In this document: positions 6,345 through 55,937 of the stretch, piece by piece
Layout of the letters: each line of letters opens with the position of its first letter
Numbering within the stretch: position 1 is the first letter of the stretch
Source of the DNA: Lepidostoma basale
Lineage: Eukaryota > Arthropoda > Insecta > Trichoptera > Lepidostomatidae
DNA: 64,000 nt
Assembly: GCA_022606425.2 (NCBI GenBank)
Contig: JAHDVF020000445.1
Coordinates: 310,001-374,000 of the forward strand
Direction: 5' to 3'
Notes under the pieces: model-generated
Seen by the model: only the letters and a program-made list of their open reading frames with translations
What the model was told of the DNA's origin: nothing
Database searches by the model: none
Translations under genes and position numbers: made by a program

Positions 6345-7440
6345 CTTCTTCTTTCGGTGCCGTGTCAGGTCTCCCCAACGTTGGCGATCACTACAGCAAA
6401 GGCATCTCTATCCTGCGCCGCTTAGAACAGGTTCTGAACTCTTGTTATTCCTGTCATCTCTTTAATGTTCTGCAGCCAGGACAGCTGCCTTCTACCAACT
6501 CCCCGACGACCCTCCACTTTACCCATTTATATCAGTCGAAGGAGGTGGTATTTTTCTCCCCTCAGCACAAGACCTAAATATTATTATTATTATTATTATT
6601 TTGTTGAGTCGCTCTTTACATCATGACAGCAAGAGCCAAATCGATGTAAGGGTATTATAGCTATCATAGTGATTCTCGTGACATGTGATAGGTAGCTAAT
6701 CTATCGTCATTTTTTTGTCACCTGAATTCTACACCAAACCAATGACAGTGTGACAATCACACTGCCCTCGCCGGGAATCGAACCCGGAACCTTCGGGGTG
6801 GCAGTCAATGCACTTACCACTCGGCCACGAAGGTCATATGAGACCTTTCTAATTTTCACATTCGTCAACAGCTCTCTATTGGCTCTGGCTCTCTGCAGTA
6901 CGTCTGCATTACTGACCCTATCGGTCCACAGTATACGGAGCATTCTGCGGTATATCCACATCTCGAACGCTTCCAACCGGTTCATTGCATTCTCTATCAG
7001 AGTCCAGGTTTCGCAGCCATATAGTAGAACAGACCATATATAACATTTAATCAATATTTGTCGGAGTTTCAAGTTAAGATTATCGTTGCAAAATAATGTT
7101 CTCATTAAATGCAGCTCGTGCAACTTCAATTGTGCATTTTATTTCAATGTCCGGGTCAAGCGCTTTAGTGATAATGCTCCCAAGGTACTTAAATTGGTCG
7201 ACCATTTCAACATTTGCACCATTCAGTTGCAGAGTGGATGAAAAATAGTTTAGTCACCCAAATGTCATCCATTTGGTCTTCTTAACGTTGATTTTCAAGC
7301 CCAGATCCTCTCCTGCTATATCTATTTTATTTAGGAGTTCTTGGAGATCGGGTATACTATCAGCTAAAATAACTGTGTCATCAGCATACCTGATGTTATT
7401 AACAAAAATCTCAATCGGATAGATTATCTCCAATTGATCC
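6345..7440 (-). mobile_element. RTE-like LINE with YADD box, split by SINE S2
   Basis: Minus strand, (GAA)n tail at the left. Segment 6836-7440 encodes, in reading order, NNIRYADDTVILADSIPDL (catalytic YADD at 7377-7388), a KINVKKTKWMTFG stretch that meets a stop, KLRQILIKCYIWSVLLYGCE and RLEAFEMWIYRRMLRILWTD. Segment 6345-6577 carries the C-terminus. The motif set YADD, LYG-ET, LEAFEMW-RRM, WTDRVSN and VIANVG is typical of RTE/BovB-like ORFs. Frameshifts and stops show it is dead. Confidence 0.85.
6578..6835 (-). mobile_element. SINE S2 with (ATA)n tail, inside RTE
   Basis: tRNA-like head on the minus strand: TGGCCGAGTGG A box and GGTTCGATTCC B box. The body includes TAGAATTCAGGTGAC, and the 3' domain has CGATTTGGCTCTTGCTGTC plus (AAT)n. 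It cuts the RTE copy between its C-terminal codons. The intact RTE order is visible at 39.8-40.4 kb. Confidence 0.85.
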
Positions 7441-7929: not shown

Positions 7930-8505
7930 CCGCCGACCTTCGTGGCCGAGTGGTAAGTGCATTGGCTGCCAACATGAAGGTTCCGGGTTCGATTTCCGGC
8001 GAGGGCAGTGTTATTATCACACTGTATTTGGTCTGGTGTAGAATTCACGTGACAATAAAATGGCGATAGATTAGCTACCTATCCACATGACACGAGAATC
8101 ACTTCTTCTTCTCTGGTTTCAATCCTGGGATTGGTTTGCAGCAATTTCCTCCATTATTCTCCTCCATTTTTCCCTATCTTGTGCGGCTCTTTTGAGATCT
8201 GCATATGATGAGCAGTGTACGTCCACCAACAGGTCCTCCAGGTACTCTCGGCGTGGGCGTCCCCTAGAGTTTGTCCCCTCGATCATACCCTCCATTATGG
8301 CATGCAAGAGACCTTCTTGACGTATTACATGGCCGATCCATCTTGCACGCCTTTCGGACAAGGTCCTGAGCAGGTGCCTTCCTCCTTCGATTCCTTGAAG
8401 AACTTCCTTGAGAATCACTATGATAGCTATAATACCGTTTACATCGAATTGGCTCATGCTGTCATGATGTAAATAGCGATTTAACAAAATAATAACAATA
8501 ATAAT
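7930..8505 (+). mobile_element. SINE S2, split by LINE-B
   Basis: A box TGGCCGAGTGG at 7943-7953 and B box GGTTCGATTTCC at 7986-7997. The body runs to GAGAATCAC (8094-8102). After the LINE-B insertion it resumes GAGAATCACTATGATAGCTA at 8410 and ends in the TCGAATTGGCTCATGCTGTC 3' domain with an (AAT)n tail. Joined, it is a near-complete S2. Confidence 0.85.
8103..8409 (-). mobile_element. LINE-B 3' end, insertion in S2
   Basis: The minus ORF encodes ERRARWIGHVIRQEGLLHAI, then a GRPRREYLEDLL motif and SYADLKRAAQDREKWRR, the C-terminus of a non-LTR RT. It ends AACCAGAGAAGAAG. The 9-bp direct repeat GAGAATCAC (8094-8102 and 8410-8418) is its target duplication. 5'-truncated. Relatives at 22.3, 28.8 and 39.36 kb. 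Confidence 0.85.
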
Positions 8506-9344: not shown

Positions 9345-9960
9345 GTACTTTGTGTTGTAGATATTTTATTTGTCTTTTTCTATTTTATATACTTTGTTTA
9401 CACAATACTTCTTCTTCTTTCTGTGTCCTGTCAGGTCTCCCTAACGTTGACTATCACCCTTCATAGTGATGACCTGGGAAAAAATATCCAGAGTGGTATC
9501 CCCTTGCCTTCTCTGGAAAATTTTCTGTCGGGGTTACCTTTCCTTAGCTGGGTGGGTGTATCCAGTTTTATAGCGCTGGAAGCTCGCCATTCGTCCTCTC
9601 TCTATCTGCTATGGCACTAAGTAATATGTGCCACATTGCCCGGGGTTCGCGGGGTCTTTAAAAGACCTCTCGTGGACTCTAGAAAGTTGGACTTGATAGG
9701 TGTTGCTGTTGTAAATGCAACATTACATTTTGTAGAGGCATACTTTCCAGCAAAGCATACCCCATCGTAGCCCTACTACCCTTTTGAACCTCATACACAA
9801 CACTAACTTATGAAAAATTAAATTACATATCAAACATGTTTCGGACAACCGGTCCTTCTTCAGTGATACATATTATAAAGATACATATTTAAAATATTTA
9901 TATTTTTACAAATATTATCAGTTTTGACAGATGTTATACAAATTTATTTTGGAACGTTTA
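9345..9960. repeat. FB2 foldback, split by element X
   Basis: Left part 9345-9408 (CGTACTTTGTGTTGTAGAT to TTTACACAATAC), then right part from 9794 (TACACAACACTAACTTATG). The minus strand at 9827-9869 carries a consensus-fitting hammerhead-like motif: GUAUCA, CUGAAGA, A, GGAC/GUCC hairpin, GAAA, ACAUGU, U, UGAUAU. Confidence 0.75.
9409..9793 (-). mobile_element. SINE-like X, complete copy
   Basis: Bounded by a 10-base near-perfect repeat, TACACAATAC (9399-9408) and TACACAACAC (9794-9803). The 3' side on the minus strand ends CACAGAAAGAAGAAG, and its last ~50 bases match the RTE 3' end. The body is non-coding. The absence of LINE-J makes this the empty-site version of the 3.4-4.2-kb copy. Confidence 0.65.
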
Positions 9961-14044: not shown

Positions 14045-14262
14045 TAATTAAATACTTTGATATTTCAACATTATTAACTGTTAAATAAAAACATTGTTAC
14101 AATGTTTTTCGACTCTTGATTGTAACACCTGATGATGCTAACATGGGTTAGCGAAACAGCTGTCGCGACATTTTAAAAATAGATATAATCAATTGTGATA
14201 TTCTAAGTTATCACAGTGTTTGAATTAAACAGTTGTTATTAAATTTTCAATCAATTATGCAT
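14045..14262 (+). repeat. FB1 copy with intact core motif
   Basis: Left arm scrap CAACATTATTAACTGTTAAA, then the plus-strand motif at 14129-14164: CUGAUGA, U, GCUAAC/GUUAGC hairpin with loop AUGG, GAAA, ACAGCUGU, C. The right arm ends in CAGTGTTTGAATTAAACAGT. Confidence 0.75.
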
Positions 14263-18525: not shown

Positions 18526-18957
18526 TATTGTTGTTGTTGTTATTATTACAATTATTATTGTTATTATTATTTTGTTGAATCGCTCTTTACATCATTACAG
18601 CCCGGGCCAAATCGATGTAAAAGTAAAGCTATCATATTGATTCTCGTGACATGTGATAGGTAGCTAATCTATCACAATTTCTTATAGATGTATTCGCCAT
18701 AACTTTGTGTTGCGAATTCATTGAACAATTGAGCTTTTTTTTTAAACTTTGTTAACAACACCAACAGAACAACAGTTGGTGCTGTATACAAAGATAAAAA
18801 ATAAATAAACATTGTTCAATCTATCACCATTTTATTGTCACGTGAATTCTACACCAGACCAAAGACAGTATGACCATCACACTGCCATCGCCGGGAATCT
18901 AACCCGGGACCTTCAGTATGAGAGTCAGAGCTCTTACCACTTTGCCACGAAGGCCGT
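18526..18957 (-). mobile_element. SINE S2, split by FB2-like element
   Basis: The 3' part is 18526-18675 with TTGTTGAATCGCTCTTTACA and the (ATA)n tail. The head and body are 18818-18957, with a minus-strand B box region AACCCGGGACC complement and TGGCAAAGTGG A box. The 10-bp repeat AATCTATCAC (18666-18675, 18818-18827) flanks the insert. Confidence 0.8.
18676..18817. repeat. FB2-like 142-bp insertion
   Basis: Contains GTATTCGCCATAACTTTGTG and an internal palindrome (ACACCAACAG...CAGTTGGTGCTG). Bounded by a perfect 10-bp target duplication AATCTATCAC. It has no hammerhead-like core, so it looks like an internally deleted FB2 relative. Confidence 0.65.
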
Positions 18958-21949: not shown

Positions 21950-22745
21950 GTCCATTGTTTTGACCGAAACACTATGATACTTTAACATTATAAACTGTTA
22001 AATGAAAAAAATGTATTTTTATACCACAATTGTATTTTTATTTTACGCGATAGCTGTTTCGTCAACCTATGTTGACATCATCAGGTATTACAATAATATA
22101 TAATATCAAATGTCAAATTTTCGTGATTTTTCGAACATTTCAACTCCAGCAAGAACTTCAAAATTATATGAAAGGAAATTATTCAAATTGATGTAGGAAC
22201 AAATACACATAAAGATTCGAAAAATCATGAATATTTGACATTGTATTATTGTAACACCTGATGATGTCAACATAGGTTGACGAAACAGCTGTCGCGTAAG
22301 ATGTGGACCTACATTTGAGTTGCCCATGTTTCATGGAGGGACCACATTACAAATGAAGAGGTTCTCAGCAGAGTTGAAGAGAGTAGGCACGTGTTGAACA
22401 CCATAGCGGAGAGGCGCGCAAGATGGATTGGTCATGTGTTGCGACACGAATGTTTCCTGCATAATGTGTTGGAGGGAATGGTTGAGGGATCGATTGGCAG
22501 AGGACGACCTCGCCAAGAGTACCTAGACCAGATTTGTCGAGATATGGGCTGCACCTCTTATGCGGAGTTGAAGAGAGTTGCCGAGGACCGAGCGGAGTGG
22601 AAGAGGAGATAAGTCGCCTCGCTGCAGACCAATCACTAGATTGAGACCGAAGAAGAAGATGATTTCGACATAAGTTGACAAAACAGTTGTCGCGTAAAAT
22701 AAAAATACAATTGTGATACATAAAACAAAGTATTTAATTTAACAG
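21950..22745. repeat. FB1 with two opposed motifs, carrying LINE-B
   Basis: Minus-strand motif at 22045-22091 and plus-strand motif at 22251-22297, the latter perfect: CUGAUGA (22258-22264), U, GUCAAC/GUUGAC with loop AUAG, GAAA (22282-22285), ACAGCUGU, C (22293). Between them lies a second palindrome with AAATGTCAAATTTTCGTGAT. A further FB1 piece (22660-22745) follows LINE-B. Confidence 0.8.
22318..22660 (+). mobile_element. LINE-B RT C-terminus
   Basis: Frame 22391-22612 plus upstream codons: EEVLSRVEESRHVLNTIAER, RARWIGHVLRHECFLHNVLE, GRGRPRQEYLDQICRDMGCT and SYAELKRVAEDRAEWKRR. Ends GACCGAAGAAGAAGATG. It is flanked by ~40-bp imperfect copies of the FB1 motif. Confidence 0.85.
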
Positions 22746-24954: not shown

Positions 24955-25316
24955 AATCATAACTGTTAATTCAAAAAACAAATCAGGTGTTATAAAAATA
25001 TATATCAAATGTCAAATTTTCGTAATTTTTCGAATCTTTGTGTATTTGTTCCTAAGTCAATTTGAATACATTTTTTTTCTTTTAAAAAAGAAATTATTCA
25101 AATTGACTTAGGAACAAATACACAAAGATTCGAAAAATTAGGAAAATTTGACATTTGGTATATATTTTTATAACACCTGATGATGTCAACATTGGTTGAT
25201 GAAACAGCTGTCGTAAATTAAAATAAATACAATTTGTGATATAAAACAAAGTTTTTGAATTAACAGTTATAAAATGTTAAAATATCATAATGTTTCGGCC
25301 AAAACAATGGACTATC
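24955..25316. repeat. FB1 with long inner palindrome
   Basis: Inner arms ATCAAATGTCAAATTTTCG and its complement meet near 25080. The plus-strand motif at 25177-25212 has CUGAUGA, U, GUCAAC/GUUGAU, GAAA, ACAGCUGU, C. It ends GGCCAAAACAATGG. The left arm's motif is deleted (ACAAATCAGGTGTT only). Confidence 0.8.
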
Positions 25317-28394: not shown

Positions 28395-28610
28395 CTATGT
28401 TCGCCATACTTTGTGTTGTGAATGTTTTATATTTTTCTTTTTCTTTTTTATATACTTTGTATTCAACACTAACTTTTTAAACAAATTAAAATTAAATATA
28501 AGACATGTTTCGGACAACCCGGTTCTTCCTCAGTGATATTATAAAGATATATAAAATATTATAAAATTGTTTACAAATATGATCAGTTTTGACAGATTTT
28601 TTAATTGATT
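28395..28610 (-). repeat. FB2 half element
   Basis: CGCCATACTTTGTGTTGTGA, TATACTTTGTATTCAACACT, then the minus-strand motif at 28494-28540: CUGAGGA, A, weakened hairpin, GAAA, ACAUGU, C. Centre region CAAATATGATCAGTTTTGAC. Confidence 0.7.
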
Positions 28611-30831: not shown

Positions 30832-31640
30832 AAAAAAGGTGGATACGTGGAACATTAATTAAATCATATAATAGACAATATGTGCACCATCTAAAAAGAA
30901 CATTTTGTGTTAAATTATTTTTATTTTGTTATTTTATTTTATATCATTGTATTTTATATTATTTATTTAGTGGGTGTTGGAAGATCGAAGTGTGCGCGGG
31001 AGATGCCTATTGGTGGCGATGAGGTTCGTAACCCATCACACCGCGTCTCCCGCGGGGCGAAAAGAGAAGGATGGAGTGCCGCATCGGTTAAAGTGGTTAT
31101 TACCCGTGGCTCTTTCCGACTGAATTCTTGCTAGGTATGCTAAGCTACCAATCATTGGAGAGAAGGAGGAACATTCACTTGGGAGTTCATTTCTTTCAGC
31201 TGATTGGCGGCCGTATACAGAACTCGGATGTCCTGAGTGATGTAGGTCTATTTGTCCCTGATAATTACCTTCGTCAAAGACAGCACAGATTGTTTTATTT
31301 GCCACGCTGCAGAACCAACCTGCCAATGGTAATGCCTGTGGGTAGGGCAATCTTATTGCTTAATCGGATCGCCTCGGAGGTCGACATATTTCGTGATAGT
31401 GTGAGTTGCCTCAGGGATGCAATATCAATGTTATGATTTTTTCTTACTCTTAAGCTTAATTTTTATTTTTTTTAATGCTTCTCTGTTTATAATGTAATTG
31501 CAAACGATTTGGAATTGTATGTCTGTAATGTTTGTGATTATTATCAAAATAAATGAAATGAAATGAAAATGAAAAAAGTGTGACAGTCCATTCTGTCTGC
31601 CTACCCTTTCGGGGAGACGGCGTGATGGTTAGTTAGTTAG
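30832..31640 (+). mobile_element. SINE S1, split by LINE-J
   Basis: GTGGATACGTGGAACATTAA start and a body with B box GGTTCGTAACC. Interrupted at AAAGTG (31090-31095), resuming AAAGTGTGACAGTCC at 31575 and ending in (GTTA)n. Full-length apart from the insertion. Confidence 0.85.
31096..31574 (+). mobile_element. LINE-J insertion in S1
   Basis: ORF 31128-31436: SLERRRNIHLGVHFFQLIGG, VGLFVPDNYLRQRQHRLFYL, CRTNLPMVMPVGRAILLLNR and IASEVDIFRDSVS, then a 3' UTR ending in (AAATG)n. Target duplication AAAGTG. The frame is open to its natural stop, so this is a fairly young, 5'-truncated copy. Confidence 0.9.
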
Positions 31641-31795
31641 TTAGTTATCTTTATAATATTACTGAGGATGGACCGGGTTGTCCGAAACATATCTGATATT
31701 TAACTTTTTTTTTTAAGTTAGTGTTGTATATACAAAGTATGTAAGAAAGAAAAAGACAAATAATTTAATTAAGTACTAGTGTTTTATTTCGGGTT
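31641..31795 (+). repeat. FB2 right half with intact motif
   Basis: Plus-strand motif 31656-31699: AUAUUA, CUGAGGA (31662-31668), U, GGAC/GUCC hairpin, GAAA, ACAUAU, C, UGAUAU. The right arm GTTAGTGTTGTATATACAAA follows. Confidence 0.8.
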
Positions 31796-44839: not shown

Positions 44840-45500
44840 ACACCCGGCAGTACTGAAACCTGTTTGTTTCGACAAAAATAAGGTGGTGTAAAAACTAGTA
44901 AAAGTCTTTGAAAAATATTTTTAAACATTCTGTGATATTATAACAATATTTAAAATTAAACAGTTAATTAAATATTAAATAGTATTTTGTTTTGGTCGAA
45001 AGATTTCAACATTATTTAATGCTAGAATTTATAACACTGTTATAATAAAAAATCGCAATTAAAATTATTCACTTTTTTAGTTTCGCGACAGATGTTTCGC
45101 CAACCGATGTTAGCATCATCAGGTGTTACAAACAAATTGTTTCAACATCTTACTCAAAAAGTAAATAATTAAAATTGTGATATTATATTGTAACAGTGTT
45201 ATAAATTCTAACATTAAATAATGTTAAGTATCACAGTCTTTCGGCCAAAATAATATTGATTAATTGTTTAATTTTAAATATTGTAAAAATATCACAGAAT
45301 ATGGTATTTAAAAATATTTTTTCAAAAACATTTCCTAGTTTTTACACCACTTTATTTTTGTCAAAACAAACCGGTGTGTTTGCTAACACCCGATGATACC
45401 AACATCGGTTGGCGAAACAACTGTCGCAACACTCAAATAGTGAATAATAAAAATTGGAATATCAAAACAGTGTTCTGAATTTTAGCAGTTTATGAAATCA
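44840..45500. repeat. Nested FB1 palindrome, ~550 bp
   Basis: Outer arms 44840-44980 and 45250-45390 (ACAAAAATAAGGTGGTGTAA and its complement) enclose an inner FB1 (44985-45250) with arms TTTGTTTTGGTCGAAAG and CTTTCGGCCAAAAT. A minus-strand motif at 45087-45122 has CUGAUGA, U, GCUAAC/GUUGGC, GAAA, ACAUCUGU, C. A third, plus-strand motif near 45390-45430 has CCGAUGA with hairpin CCAAC/GUUGG. Confidence 0.75.
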
Positions 45501-47639: not shown

Positions 47640-48337
47640 CACTAACTAACTAAATAACTAACCATCACGCCGTCTCTTCGAATGGGTAGGCCAAAAGAAT
47701 GGACTGCCATACTTTTCTTTCCTGACATATTCCGCTCGATTCCTCAACATTCATACATCGTGTCATGCACGCGCGTCGATTTCTCTGACTCCTCACATGG
47801 CCGACATTTAATATTTTATTTATTTGATCGTGCCACGTTTTCCTCGGTCTTCCTCTATTTCTGGTTTCATTTACATCGTTAACATATAATTTTTTTATCA
47901 TTCGTTGTTTCCATACGTCCAAACCATCTTAATGATCCTTTCATTATTTTTTTCATAACACCATCATTCGACACTCTACGTATCGACACATTCGTCTAAG
48001 AGATCTCATTTCTACTACATTTATTCTACTTTCTTTTTTTTTACGTATACAACAGGTCGCTTGAACCCAATTACAGTATACAATTGGTTTTTAAGCTGAT
48101 ATATTGATTCTCGTGACATGTGACAGGTAGCCAATCTATCGCCATTTTATTGTCACGAGAATACTACGCCAGACCAAAGACAGTGTGACAATCACACTGC
48201 CATCGCCGGGAATCGAACCCAGAACCTTTGGAATGGGAATCAGAGCTCTTACCACTCTGCCACGAAGGTCGTCATCCTTCTTTTGCCAGTTCCATGCATC
48301 GCTTCCATACATAAGGGTCGGTACAAGAACATACCGT
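47640..48337 (-). mobile_element. LINE-A split by SINE S2
   Basis: 47640-48035: minus codons KKLYVNDVNETRNRGRPRKT, WHDQINKILNVGHVRSQRNR and RACMTRCMNVEESSGICQER. 48276-48337 continues the upstream QKKDD, CMEA-TLMYG part. The S2 copy lies exactly between the codons of ..RINVVEMRSL and QKKD. Confidence 0.85.
48036..48275 (-). mobile_element. SINE S2, complete, second tail type
   Basis: Minus strand: TGGCAGAGTGG A box, GGGTTCGATTCCCGG B box, body, then AATTGTATACTGTAATTGGG and GTTGTATACGTAAAAAAAAA. Confidence 0.85.
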
Positions 48338-50940: not shown

Positions 50941-51290
50941 AAAGTAAATGCGGTGCAAATTATGGTGTAATGAACGAAATAATGAAGGGATCATTAATAT
51001 GGTTTGGACACACGGAAATAATGAATGAAGAAAGAATGGTAATAAAAGTATATGTTAATGATGTGAATGGAACTAGAAATAGGGGACGTACGAGGAAAAC
51101 GTGACACGATCAAATAAATCAAATATTGAATGTCGGCCACGTGAGGAGTCAGATAAATCGACGCGCGTGCATGACACAATGTATTAATATTGGGAAGTGA
51201 GAGAAATATGTCAGGAAAGGAAAGTGTGGCAGTCCATTATTTTTGCCTACCCCTTCGGCGAGACGGCGTGATAGTTAGTTAGTAAAAACT
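50941..51290 (+). mobile_element. LINE-A copy
   Basis: GTAATGAACGAAATAATGAA through MNEERMVIKVYVNDVNGTRN codons, then TRKTW disrupted by a stop (ACGTGACACGATC) and the CGGCGAGACGGCGTGATAGT tail. Confidence 0.8.
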
Positions 51291-51309
51291 GTATACATGG
51301 ATATAAAAT

Positions 51310-51690
51310 AACTAATTTACTAACCATCACGCCGTTTCCCCGGAGGGGTAGGCAGAGAGGATGGACCGCCAAACTGTTCTATCCTGACATAATTTTTGCG
51401 ATTCTTCTACATTTACTCAACGTGAAACGCACGCTCGTCGATTGTTCCTACTTTGAATATGGCCGCCTTTCAGTACTTGATTAATTTGGTCATGCCATAT
51501 CTTCAATGGCATGATCAAATTAATCAATTACTGAAAGGCGGCCATGTTCGAAGTAGGAACAATCGACGAGCGTGCATGTGACGATGTGTGAATGTAGAAA
51601 AGGCGCGAGAATCATGCCAGTATAGAACAATGTGACGATCCATCCTCTCTGCCTACCCCTCAGAGGAAATGGCGTGTGGTTAGTTAGTTA
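51310..51690. repeat. LINE-A inverted dimer
   Basis: Left arm minus (51315-51495), right arm plus (51505-51690). Both are the same 3' region of the second subfamily (GGCGGCCAT..., CGACGAGCGTGCAT), with (GTTA) tails pointing outward. The centre is ATGCCATATCTTCAATGGCAT. The arms agree over ~180 bases. Confidence 0.85.
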
Positions 51691-55391: not shown

Positions 55392-55480
55392 AATATGCAG
55401 TAAAAGTGTTACAGTCCATTCTTTCTGCCTACCCTTTCGGAGAGACGGCGTGATGGTTAGTTAGTTAGTTAGTTAGAGTA
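55392..55480 (+). mobile_element. SINE S1 tail scrap
   Basis: CAGTAAAAGTGTTACAGTCC, GGAGAGACGGCGTGATGG and (GTTA)5. Confidence 0.65.
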
Positions 55481-55487
55481 TAACATT

Positions 55488-55820
55488 ATTTCTTCTAGGT
55501 TCGCCATACTGTTGTAGATGTTTTATTTGTCTTTTTTTATATTATTTCTATATACAACACTTACTTTTAAAAAAATTACATATCAGACATGTTTCGGACA
55601 ACCGGTCCTTCCTCAGTGATAAAGATGTATATAAATTTTTATAACATCTGTCAAAACTGATCATATTTGTAAACAATTTTATAATATTTTATATTTGTAT
55701 CTTTATAATATCACTGAGGAAGGATCGGTTGTCCGAAACATGTCTGATGTGAAATTTTAAAAATTGTTTAAGTTAGTGTTAATGTTATACAAAGTATATA
55801 AAAAAAAAAGAATGCAAAAT
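55488..55820. repeat. FB2 complete foldback with two hammerhead-like motifs
   Basis: Minus motif 55581-55621: UAUCA, CUGAGGA, A, GGAC/GUCC with loop CGGUU, GAAA, ACAUGU, C, UGAUA. Plus motif 55708-55750: AUAUCA, CUGAGGA (55714-55720), A, GGAU/GUCC, GAAA (55735-55738), ACAUGU, C (55744), UGAUGU. The arms continue to TTAGTGTTAATGTTATACAA. Confidence 0.85.
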
Positions 55821-55937
55821 TTACATCATTTTTCAAAAAAACGTGTAATAAATACTTACAATGATCGTTTTTGCCTAAATGATGACTTTTAAATGTTTAA
55901 ATGAAAAATAATTTAATTGCGATAAATAGGTGACAAA

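What the first reader, a model, noticed from the sequence alone, without database searches (positions are those of the whole stretch)
55488..55820. Hammerhead-ribozyme-like motifs in the FB2 foldback family
Both arms of this element carry, in order: a strand (UAUCA or AUAUCA), CUGAGGA, one A, the hairpin GGAC-CGGUU-GUCC, GAAA, ACAUGU, C, and a strand complementary to the first (UGAUA or UGAUGU). This matches the hammerhead layout: stem I closed by the outer strands, CUGANGA and GAAA cores, a tiny palindromic stem III (ACAUGU) and a GUC cleavage site before stem I. Further copies fit at 9827-9869 minus (CUGAAGA) and 31656-31699 plus. The departure from the textbook form is one unpaired base between the CUGANGA A9 and stem II. 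Stem III this short usually implies dimeric folding, as known for newt and retrozyme-type hammerheads. Activity is inferred.
Basis: partly seen in the sequence, partly recalled or inferred. Interest (0 to 1): 0.9.

Follow-up and report, generated by a model that had tools for sequence, protein, structure and literature searches.

The report
Hammerhead ribozymes in two-armed Penelope insertions
The palindrome-like "foldback" is two shortened copies of a Penelope-type jumping gene joined head to head, each still carrying that element's small hammerhead-ribozyme motif, and the pattern of such pairs elsewhere in the genome suggests how these elements insert.

Summary
The motif is real. The genome has 871 exact copies of A and 4589 of B; reversed-pattern controls give 0. 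Six families share one layout: CUGANGA, one extra A/U (69 of 69), stem II, GAAA, a mostly palindromic stem III (61 of 69) and GUC/GUU. No Rfam hammerhead model matched.

FB2 is not a DNA foldback. HHRs A, C, D and D2 lie just 3' of Penelope-like (PLE) ORFs, in 8 of 14 flanks picked by protein. FB2 is two 5'-truncated PLE 3' ends joined head to head. In family C, 33 of 33 such insertions examined have one short and one long 3' end, about 40 nt apart; 32 of 33 have a TSD-like repeat (mismatched flanks 154 of 1056). Three of 16 carry different alleles in their arms. This fits two-sided target-primed reverse transcription.

Within FB2 the arms fold into one hairpin, so no dimeric ribozyme in cis. 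Catalysis is untested. PLE hammerheads are a published class; the one-long/one-short rule is the unexpected part.

The parts
55483..55491 (.). Candidate left target-site duplication ACATTATTT
   Evidence: Read by eye; matches 55823-55831 at 8 of 9; tentative
55492..55580 (-). 3' end of the left arm, LONG type (tail past the putative start codon of the Penelope-like ORF)
   Evidence: Tail detected on the left arm only
55581..55621 (-). Hammerhead-like motif of the left arm: stem I UAUCA/UGAUA, CUGAGGA, extra A, GGAC-CGGUU-GUCC, GAAA, ACAUGU, C55586
55622..55707 (.). Head-to-head junction region between the two 5'-truncated arms
   Evidence: same arrangement in related loci
55708..55750 (+). Hammerhead-like motif of the right arm; predicted cleavage after C55744
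55751..55822 (+). 3' end of the right arm, SHORT type (no tail found); end point by eye
55823..55831 (.). Candidate right target-site duplication ACATCATTT
   Evidence: Read by eye; tentative
9828..9868 (-). Family A motif without a second arm nearby; GUU instead of GUC
31656..31699 (+). Family A motif with ACAUAU and U as extra base
28497..28538 (-).
14124..14170 (+). Family B motif: CUGAUGA, U, 6-bp stem II, GAAA, ACAGCUGU, C
22044..22089 (-). Family B motif, minus member of a divergent pair with 22258+; cleavage triplet changed (GAAACAGCTATC)
22253..22300 (+). Family B motif, plus member of the divergent pair
25172..25218 (+). Family B motif
45082..45127 (-). Family B motif (stem III ACAUCUGU)

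Best explanation
FB2 is a relic of a Penelope-like (PLE) insertion made of two 5'-truncated 3' ends joined head to head. Each arm carries the PLE's own small, dimer-type hammerhead motif in the 3' UTR/pLTR. Mechanism (inferred): the PLE protein cuts both target strands with a stagger of roughly 5-12 nt, and each 3'-OH primes reverse transcription of an element RNA. One strand starts at a proximal site (about 54 nt past the ribozyme site in family C), the other at a distal site (about 95 nt past it, just after the start codon). The two cDNAs are joined at their 5'-truncated ends, and the stagger becomes the target-site duplication. Shown: motif, pairing changes, link to PLE ORFs, divergent orientation, one-short/one-long ends, TSD-like repeats, different alleles in the two arms of some insertions. 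Inferred: two-sided priming, and any catalysis. On the FB2 locus itself the ribozyme is probably silent.
For: A family C HHR follows an ORF piece with a GIY-YIG domain (PF01541 8.2e-5, above cut-off). Of 14 flanks taken downstream of ORFs found by protein similarity, 8 hold a sense HHR pattern: C in L030 and L032; D in L033, L035 and L036; D2 in L042; A in L044 and, as a variant, L041. An 858-aa D-family ORF has RVT_1 1.5e-11 (above cut-off) followed by GIY-YIG 0.0014 (below cut-off). Neighbouring HHRs are divergent: family A 12 of 13 pairs within 1.5 kb; family C 33 of 34 pairs within 3 kb among the first 100 of 182 places; none convergent in either. Ends: C 33 of 33 one short and one long, with a TSD-like repeat in 32 of 33 against 154 of 1056 mismatched flank pairs; A 9 of 12; B 5 of 6 and D 2 of 2, read by eye. 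In 3 of 16 C insertions the two arms differ at a site that is polymorphic in the family. Published precedents: head-to-head inverted pLTRs, and an optional tail on one of them (PMC3846280, passages); purified PLE protein cuts and extends both target strands from two internal start sites, and has an HHR at the ORF start (PMC11167929, section 3).
Against: No Rfam hammerhead match at E up to 10. The FB2 plus arm alone does not fold as a hammerhead at minimum energy (z -0.63). In six typed motif strings the double-hammerhead fold is never the predicted dimer minimum, and stems I+II are the monomer minimum in A only (two of six strings). Exceptions to the end rule: L027 has two short ends, L016 and L028 could not be read (family A); L075 (family B) is not short/long. 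In 12 of the 15 C insertions that cover at least one polymorphic site the arms do not differ there, which does not separate one RNA from two; the minor allele at -23 (L055) is otherwise seen only in the insertion in L011/L029. Six of 14 downstream flanks show no HHR by the pattern (L037 has a decayed one by eye). No ORF was linked to families B and E.
Confidence: 0.85

Rival explanations
1. Self-priming: one cDNA snaps back and copies itself, giving an inverted repeat (the model proposed in PMC3846280, passages).
For: Several inner junctions look palindromic by eye (L047, L050, L052, L055). L049 and L050 share private variants in both arms.
Against: A copied arm should end where the first arm ends and carry the same alleles. 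In family C the two 3' ends differ by about 40 nt in 33 of 33, and three insertions differ at family-polymorphic sites.
Confidence: 0.12
2. A DNA foldback transposon or MITE whose inverted arms happen to contain a hammerhead-like sequence.
For: FB2 forms a long hairpin and may have a 9-bp duplication.
Against: The same motif and arm sequence are found 3' of a PLE ORF (L044); outer ends are unequal; inner lengths in the related family C vary from 7 nt to more than 2 kb. No transposase search was made.
Confidence: 0.03
3. A retrozyme: a small non-autonomous element that spreads through ribozyme-made circular RNA.
For: Type I layout, short copies without an ORF.
Against: Animal retrozymes lie in head-to-tail tandem repeats of 150-450 bp (PMC7229834, passages). 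Here same-strand neighbours are rare: 1 of 13 pairs in A, 1 of 34 in C, and by eye 1 of 7 pairs within 1 kb in the first 100 B places.
Confidence: 0.05
4. The motif is kept for RNA pairing or protein recognition and is hardly or not catalytic.
For: 95 of the first 100 family C places continue upstream through the cleavage site (GAAACATGTC or a one-letter variant), so the RNA copied there was probably uncut. In the anole PLE, ribozyme mutants still inserted, and cleavage needed protein (PMC11167929). All 69 instances have the extra base.
Against: In flanks picked by protein similarity, not by the motif, 8 of 14 hold the whole core with a cleavage triplet, in four different sequence versions; a mere binding site would not need that. 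cannot be used here, because its pattern required the core.
Confidence: 0.3

Closest known systems
Penelope-like-element hammerheads (Cervera and De la Pena 2014; Lunse, Weinberg and Breaker 2017)
   Same: Minimal type I HHR with reduced stem III, in PLE pLTRs, thought to act as dimers; so described in PMC7761336 and PMC6466107 (passages)
   Different: The two primary papers are not held, so whether their consensus has the extra base after CUGANGA could not be checked
Penelope elements of Adineta vaga (PMC3846280)
   Same: Head-to-head inverted pLTRs, TSDs of 8-10 bp in some copies, optional tail on one inverted pLTR (passages)
   Different: Here the tail is on exactly one end in 33 of 33 family C insertions, and some arms seem to come from different templates, which argues against the self-priming model proposed there
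Poseidon PLE of the green anole, PAc (PMC11167929)
   Same: HHR at the pLTR/ORF start, two internal RT start sites, cleavage and extension of both target strands (section 3)
   Different: The paper saw no difference in start site between strands in vitro; in these genomic insertions the two ends use different sites
Viroid hammerhead with an extra core nucleotide (De la Pena and Flores 2001)
   Same: An added nucleotide in the core; only the title was seen, in reference lists; that it sits between A9 and stem II is recalled
   Different: Viroid hammerhead with a full stem III (recalled)
Amphibian retrozyme hammerheads (PMC7229834, passages)
   Same: Type I, short helix III, more active as dimers
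   Different: Small tandem repeats with circular RNA, not divergent PLE arms

Membership tests
Hammerhead ribozyme | CUGANGA and GAA(A) core in type I order | tested here: met
   and in 8 of 14 flanks picked by protein
Hammerhead ribozyme | Stem II with compensatory change | tested here: met
   Pairs 2-4: 62, 67 and 64 of 69 paired, 0 of 1000 shuffles as high; pair 1 not informative (361 of 1000). Shuffles ignore relatedness
Hammerhead ribozyme | Stem I closing the core | tested here: met
   Pairs 1-3: 63, 53 and 50 of 69 paired, above all 1000 shuffles; pair 5 is not (955 of 1000); many family B copies have A-C at pair 2
Hammerhead ribozyme | Stem III hairpin in the monomer | tested here: not met
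   Only a palindrome (61 of 69; the pattern itself fixed its C and G)
Hammerhead ribozyme | Stem II directly after A9 | tested here: not met
   55 of 55 pair best at offset +1; extra base A (51) or U (18) of 69
Hammerhead ribozyme | Match to an Rfam hammerhead model | tested here: not met
   (family E not tested)
Hammerhead ribozyme | Self-cleavage after H17 | not testable with these tools
   Needs RNA chemistry
Penelope-like-element pLTR | Adjacent ORF with RT and GIY-YIG domains | tested here: met
   C: GIY-YIG above cut-off; D: RVT_1 above, GIY-YIG below cut-off; A: motif 3' of an ORF match 72% identical to the C protein piece; B and E not linked
Penelope-like-element pLTR | Inverted head-to-head pLTRs, optional tail, short TSD | tested here: met
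Retrozyme | Head-to-tail tandem repeats | tested here: not met
Retrozyme | Circular RNA | not testable with these tools
   Needs RNA data
Foldback DNA transposon | Equal inverted ends | tested here: not met
   One end tailed, the other not, in FB2
Foldback DNA transposon | Transposase-bearing parent | not tested
   No transposase search was made

The most novel reading that the evidence does not exclude
The palindromic, dimer-type hammerhead is the device that pairs two PLE RNAs, much as a retroviral dimer-initiation site does. The paired RNAs are delivered to one target and prime both cut strands, one from the proximal and one from the distal site. That would explain at once the kept palindrome, the two-armed insertions, the one-long/one-short rule and the arms copied from different RNAs, and would give PLE hammerheads a role that does not depend on cleavage.
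Probability: 0.12. Interest if true: 0.8.

Novelty: new member of a known kind. Interest (0 to 1): 0.52.

Why it matters
[quoted passage not shown] This genome, with thousands of copies and at least six HHR families by my labels, makes both questions testable: each insertion records where each strand was primed, and the one-short/one-long rule together with mixed-allele arms points to coordinated priming of both strands. It also warns that foldback-like or miRNA-like hairpins in animal genomes may be two-armed PLE insertions.

Tried and rejected
Rfam as arbiter: no hammerhead hit; miRNA-model matches on FB2, L047 and L073 stay below gathering scores and I read them as effects of the long hairpins. 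Dimer folding: the double-hammerhead fold is favourable but not the predicted minimum (mis-scored the dimers and is not used for them). Insertion 5' ends at the ribozyme site, which would show cut templates: of the first 100 family C places 5 do not continue upstream; two of these (C607, C807) share only 18 letters with the element and one flank, so they are probably not copies of it; C625 (two places, L059) and C628 (L063) begin within about six bases of the site. The pattern excluded a G at its first place, so a part of such ends was not seen. Of the 5' flanks of seven long ORFs, fetched, three showed a 5' end by eye: about six bases before the site (C853, L031), about +8 (C916, L034) and about +41 (C753, L068); none lies exactly at the site. 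C258 showed a tandem copy instead, and C887, C956 and C1406 no end. The N-terminal 32-mer of the family C ORF occurs only twice in the genome with up to one mismatch, so 5' ends are too few to test this. Alignment A1 cut several minus-strand copies short through my coordinates and was not used for counts; one search was used instead. One search used letters typed by eye and serves only as an illustration. Viral contigs held no exact match to the family A motif (records of this genome may be left out there). I make no claim that the one-long/one-short rule is not in print; the searches nearest to it were made, listings only.

Full report
What is in the window. The described motif is present in both arms of 55488-55820, in opposite orientation, at the stated places. 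The labels A-E are mine. The genome (769 Mb; the window is part of contig C1047) has 871 exact copies of the 31-nt A pattern and 4589 of a 35-place B pattern; the patterns read backwards occur 0 times.

What the motif is. From the window and L009-L065, 69 distinct instances were collected with a pattern that fixed the core, the GAAA and part of stem III, but neither the base after CUGANGA nor any pairing. The base after CUGANGA is A (51) or U (18), never G or C. In a separate count stem II pairs best at offset +1 in 55 of 55. Stem II pairs 2, 3 and 4 are paired in 62, 67 and 64 of 69 with several pair types (0 of 1000 shuffles as high); pair 1 is uninformative. Stem I pairs 1-3 are paired in 63, 53 and 50 of 69, above all shuffles; pair 5 is not. 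The shuffles ignore relatedness, so these numbers support a structure but are not probabilities. Stem III is a perfect palindrome in 61 of 69, and its letters change between families (ACAUGU, ACAGCUGU, ACCGGU, ACUAGU), as a stem formed between two molecules would allow. The last base before stem I is C (55) or U (14), as the pattern allowed. This is a type I hammerhead layout with two departures: no monomer stem III, and one extra base after A9. Rfam has no hit to a hammerhead model at E up to 10, in the window or in six loci of families A, B, C, D and D2. An extra core nucleotide has a published precedent in a viroid hammerhead (De la Pena and Flores 2001; title seen in reference lists; its place after A9 is recalled). 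[quoted passage not shown]

What carries it. L011:28-678 is an ORF piece with a GIY-YIG domain above its Pfam cut-off (8.2e-5). A family C motif follows it in sense orientation at L011:795 and an inverted one precedes it at L029:4039. A genome search with this piece scored 150 matches out of 9580 first-look candidates, with open frames up to 873 aa. I chose 14 of these matches and fetched the sequence just downstream. Eight of 14 hold a sense hammerhead pattern within 400 nt of the start of the fetched flank: C in L030 and L032; D in L033, L035 and L036; D2 in L042; A in L044 and, as a variant, L041. L037 has a decayed A motif by eye; L038, L039, L040, L043 and L045 have no match to the pattern. 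These flanks were picked by protein, so they are independent of the motif. An unbroken 858-aa ORF of the D family has RVT_1 at 1.5e-11 (above cut-off) and, after it, GIY-YIG at 0.0014 (below cut-off). RT and GIY-YIG in one ORF is the canonical PLE architecture (PMC11167929, section 3). A protein search found 11 relatives, which between them carry RVT_1, GIY-YIG and PF26215. So family A, the FB2 family, is the 3' end of a PLE whose protein match (L044's ORF, with one stop inside) is 72% identical to that of family C.

What FB2 is. In L009-L028 and the window, neighbouring family A motifs within 1.5 kb form 13 pairs: 12 divergent, one tandem, none convergent. Among the first 100 of 182 family C places, 34 pairs lie within 3 kb: 33 divergent, one tandem, none convergent; 33 places are solo. 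In the first 100 of 4589 family B places I count by eye 6 divergent and 1 same-strand pair within 1 kb, none convergent. Each divergent pair is two 3' ends pointing outward, joined head to head at variable 5' truncation points, 9 nt to 2.7 kb apart from start to start in family C. The ends are not alike. In all 33 divergent family C pairs (16 fetched, 16, and the one in L029/L011) one arm matches the element to 48-59 nt past the ribozyme site and the other to 91-99 nt; the short end is on the left in 21 and on the right in 12. If each end chose its site independently and evenly, 33 of 33 would have a chance of 2^-33. A TSD-like repeat of 5-12 bp, with small offsets and one mismatch allowed at 8 bp or more, is found in 32 of 33, against 154 of 1056 when flanks of different insertions are compared; the control used the nearest 16 bases of each flank. 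Some of these repeats lie in simple sequence (L049, L029/L011). In family A 9 of 12 pairs have exactly one tailed arm, FB2 included; L027 has two short ends, and L016 and L028 could not be read. In family B 5 of 6 and in family D 2 of 2 follow the rule, read by eye; L075 does not. The long end lies just past an ATG in A, B, C and D. In FB2 the left arm is the long one, and ACATTATTT / ACATCATTT may be the target duplication (by eye).

How it most likely works. Two outward 3' ends with a short target duplication, unequal but fixed start points and separate 5' truncation are what two-sided target-primed reverse transcription would leave. A snap-back copy of one cDNA should give two equal ends and equal alleles. 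In 3 of 16 insertions the two arms differ at one of the two positions that are polymorphic across the family (-41: L048, L053; -23: L055), which suggests different RNA templates. Other differences between arms: single private ones inside the arm in L049, L050 and L056, and some in the last bases near the insertion boundary (L047, L048, L049, L054, L057). The minor allele at -23 is otherwise seen only in L029/L011, so L055 is the weakest of the three. In 12 of 15 insertions that cover at least one of the two sites the arms do not differ there, and L049 and L050 share private variants in both arms, which fits one source locus or one RNA. The purified anole PLE cuts and extends both strands and starts inside the RNA at two sites (PMC11167929). 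The one-short/one-long rule sharpens the published remark that a tail is optionally present on one of the inverted pLTRs (PMC3846280).

What the ribozyme does. Unknown, and not shown to be active. 95 of the first 100 family C places run on upstream through the predicted cleavage site, so the RNA copied there was probably uncut. L059 and L063 begin within a few nucleotides of the site, but both keep some bases from before it. In the anole PLE, cleavage needed protein, and ribozyme mutants still inserted. In FB2 itself the two arms are complementary and the transcript folds into one hairpin (-102.3 kcal/mol, z -14.6), and the plus arm alone does not fold as a hammerhead. Typed family A motifs do have stems I and II as their predicted monomer minimum; B, D, D2 and E do not. 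The double hammerhead of A (-22.4) is near the dimer minimum (-25.7); D2 is furthest off (-16.6 against -34.0); family C was not scored. I therefore think that the locus is a silent relic, that dimeric RNAs of intact PLEs may cleave, and that pairing of two RNAs through stem III is the most interesting open role.

Relation to the literature. PLE hammerheads with reduced stem III that act as dimers are published (Cervera and De la Pena 2014; Lunse et al. 2017). I know them here only through passages of PMC7761336, PMC6466107, PMC6155905 and PMC7229834 and through reference lists; neither is held. The finding is therefore filed as a new member of a known kind. Animal retrozymes are tandem repeats (PMC7229834, passages), which these are not.

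Noticed in passing
14129+, 22084-/22258+, 25177+, 45122-: Second hammerhead family (B) with 4589 exact genomic copies of its pattern; no ORF has been linked to it. 22084-/22258+ is another divergent pair in the window.
   Followed up: partly
6763-6834 -, 7936-8007 +, 18883-18954 -, 48198-48269 -: Four tRNA-model hits with modest scores (29.6-38 bits, cut-off 29), possibly tRNA-derived SINEs rather than tRNA genes.
   Followed up: no
31590-31650 and 55415-55478: A stretch like 'cctaccctttcggrgagacggcgtgatggttagttagttag' directly abuts family A arms at both places; it looks like another repeat family.
   Followed up: no
L069 (C258:613700-614800): Head-to-tail tandem PLE copies of the D family, with a hammerhead between the two ORFs: the arrangement in which a dimeric ribozyme could act in cis.
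   Followed up: partly
window 25021-25142 and 51221-51552; L047, L073: Rfam miRNA-model matches below gathering score; in L047 and L073 they fall on two-armed PLE insertions, a possible trap for miRNA annotation. The two window places were not examined.
   Followed up: no
L022:62-1150 -: Separate reverse-transcriptase ORF (RVT_1 1.2e-25, no GIY-YIG hit).
   Followed up: no
L063 (C628:456245-456650): One-armed family C insertion: long end only, 5' end six bases before the ribozyme site, flanked by CTAAAGTAT on both sides (by eye).
   Followed up: partly
L055 (C335:430165-430770): A family C locus with three motif copies (-, -, +), probably an insertion with an extra tandem partial arm.
   Followed up: no
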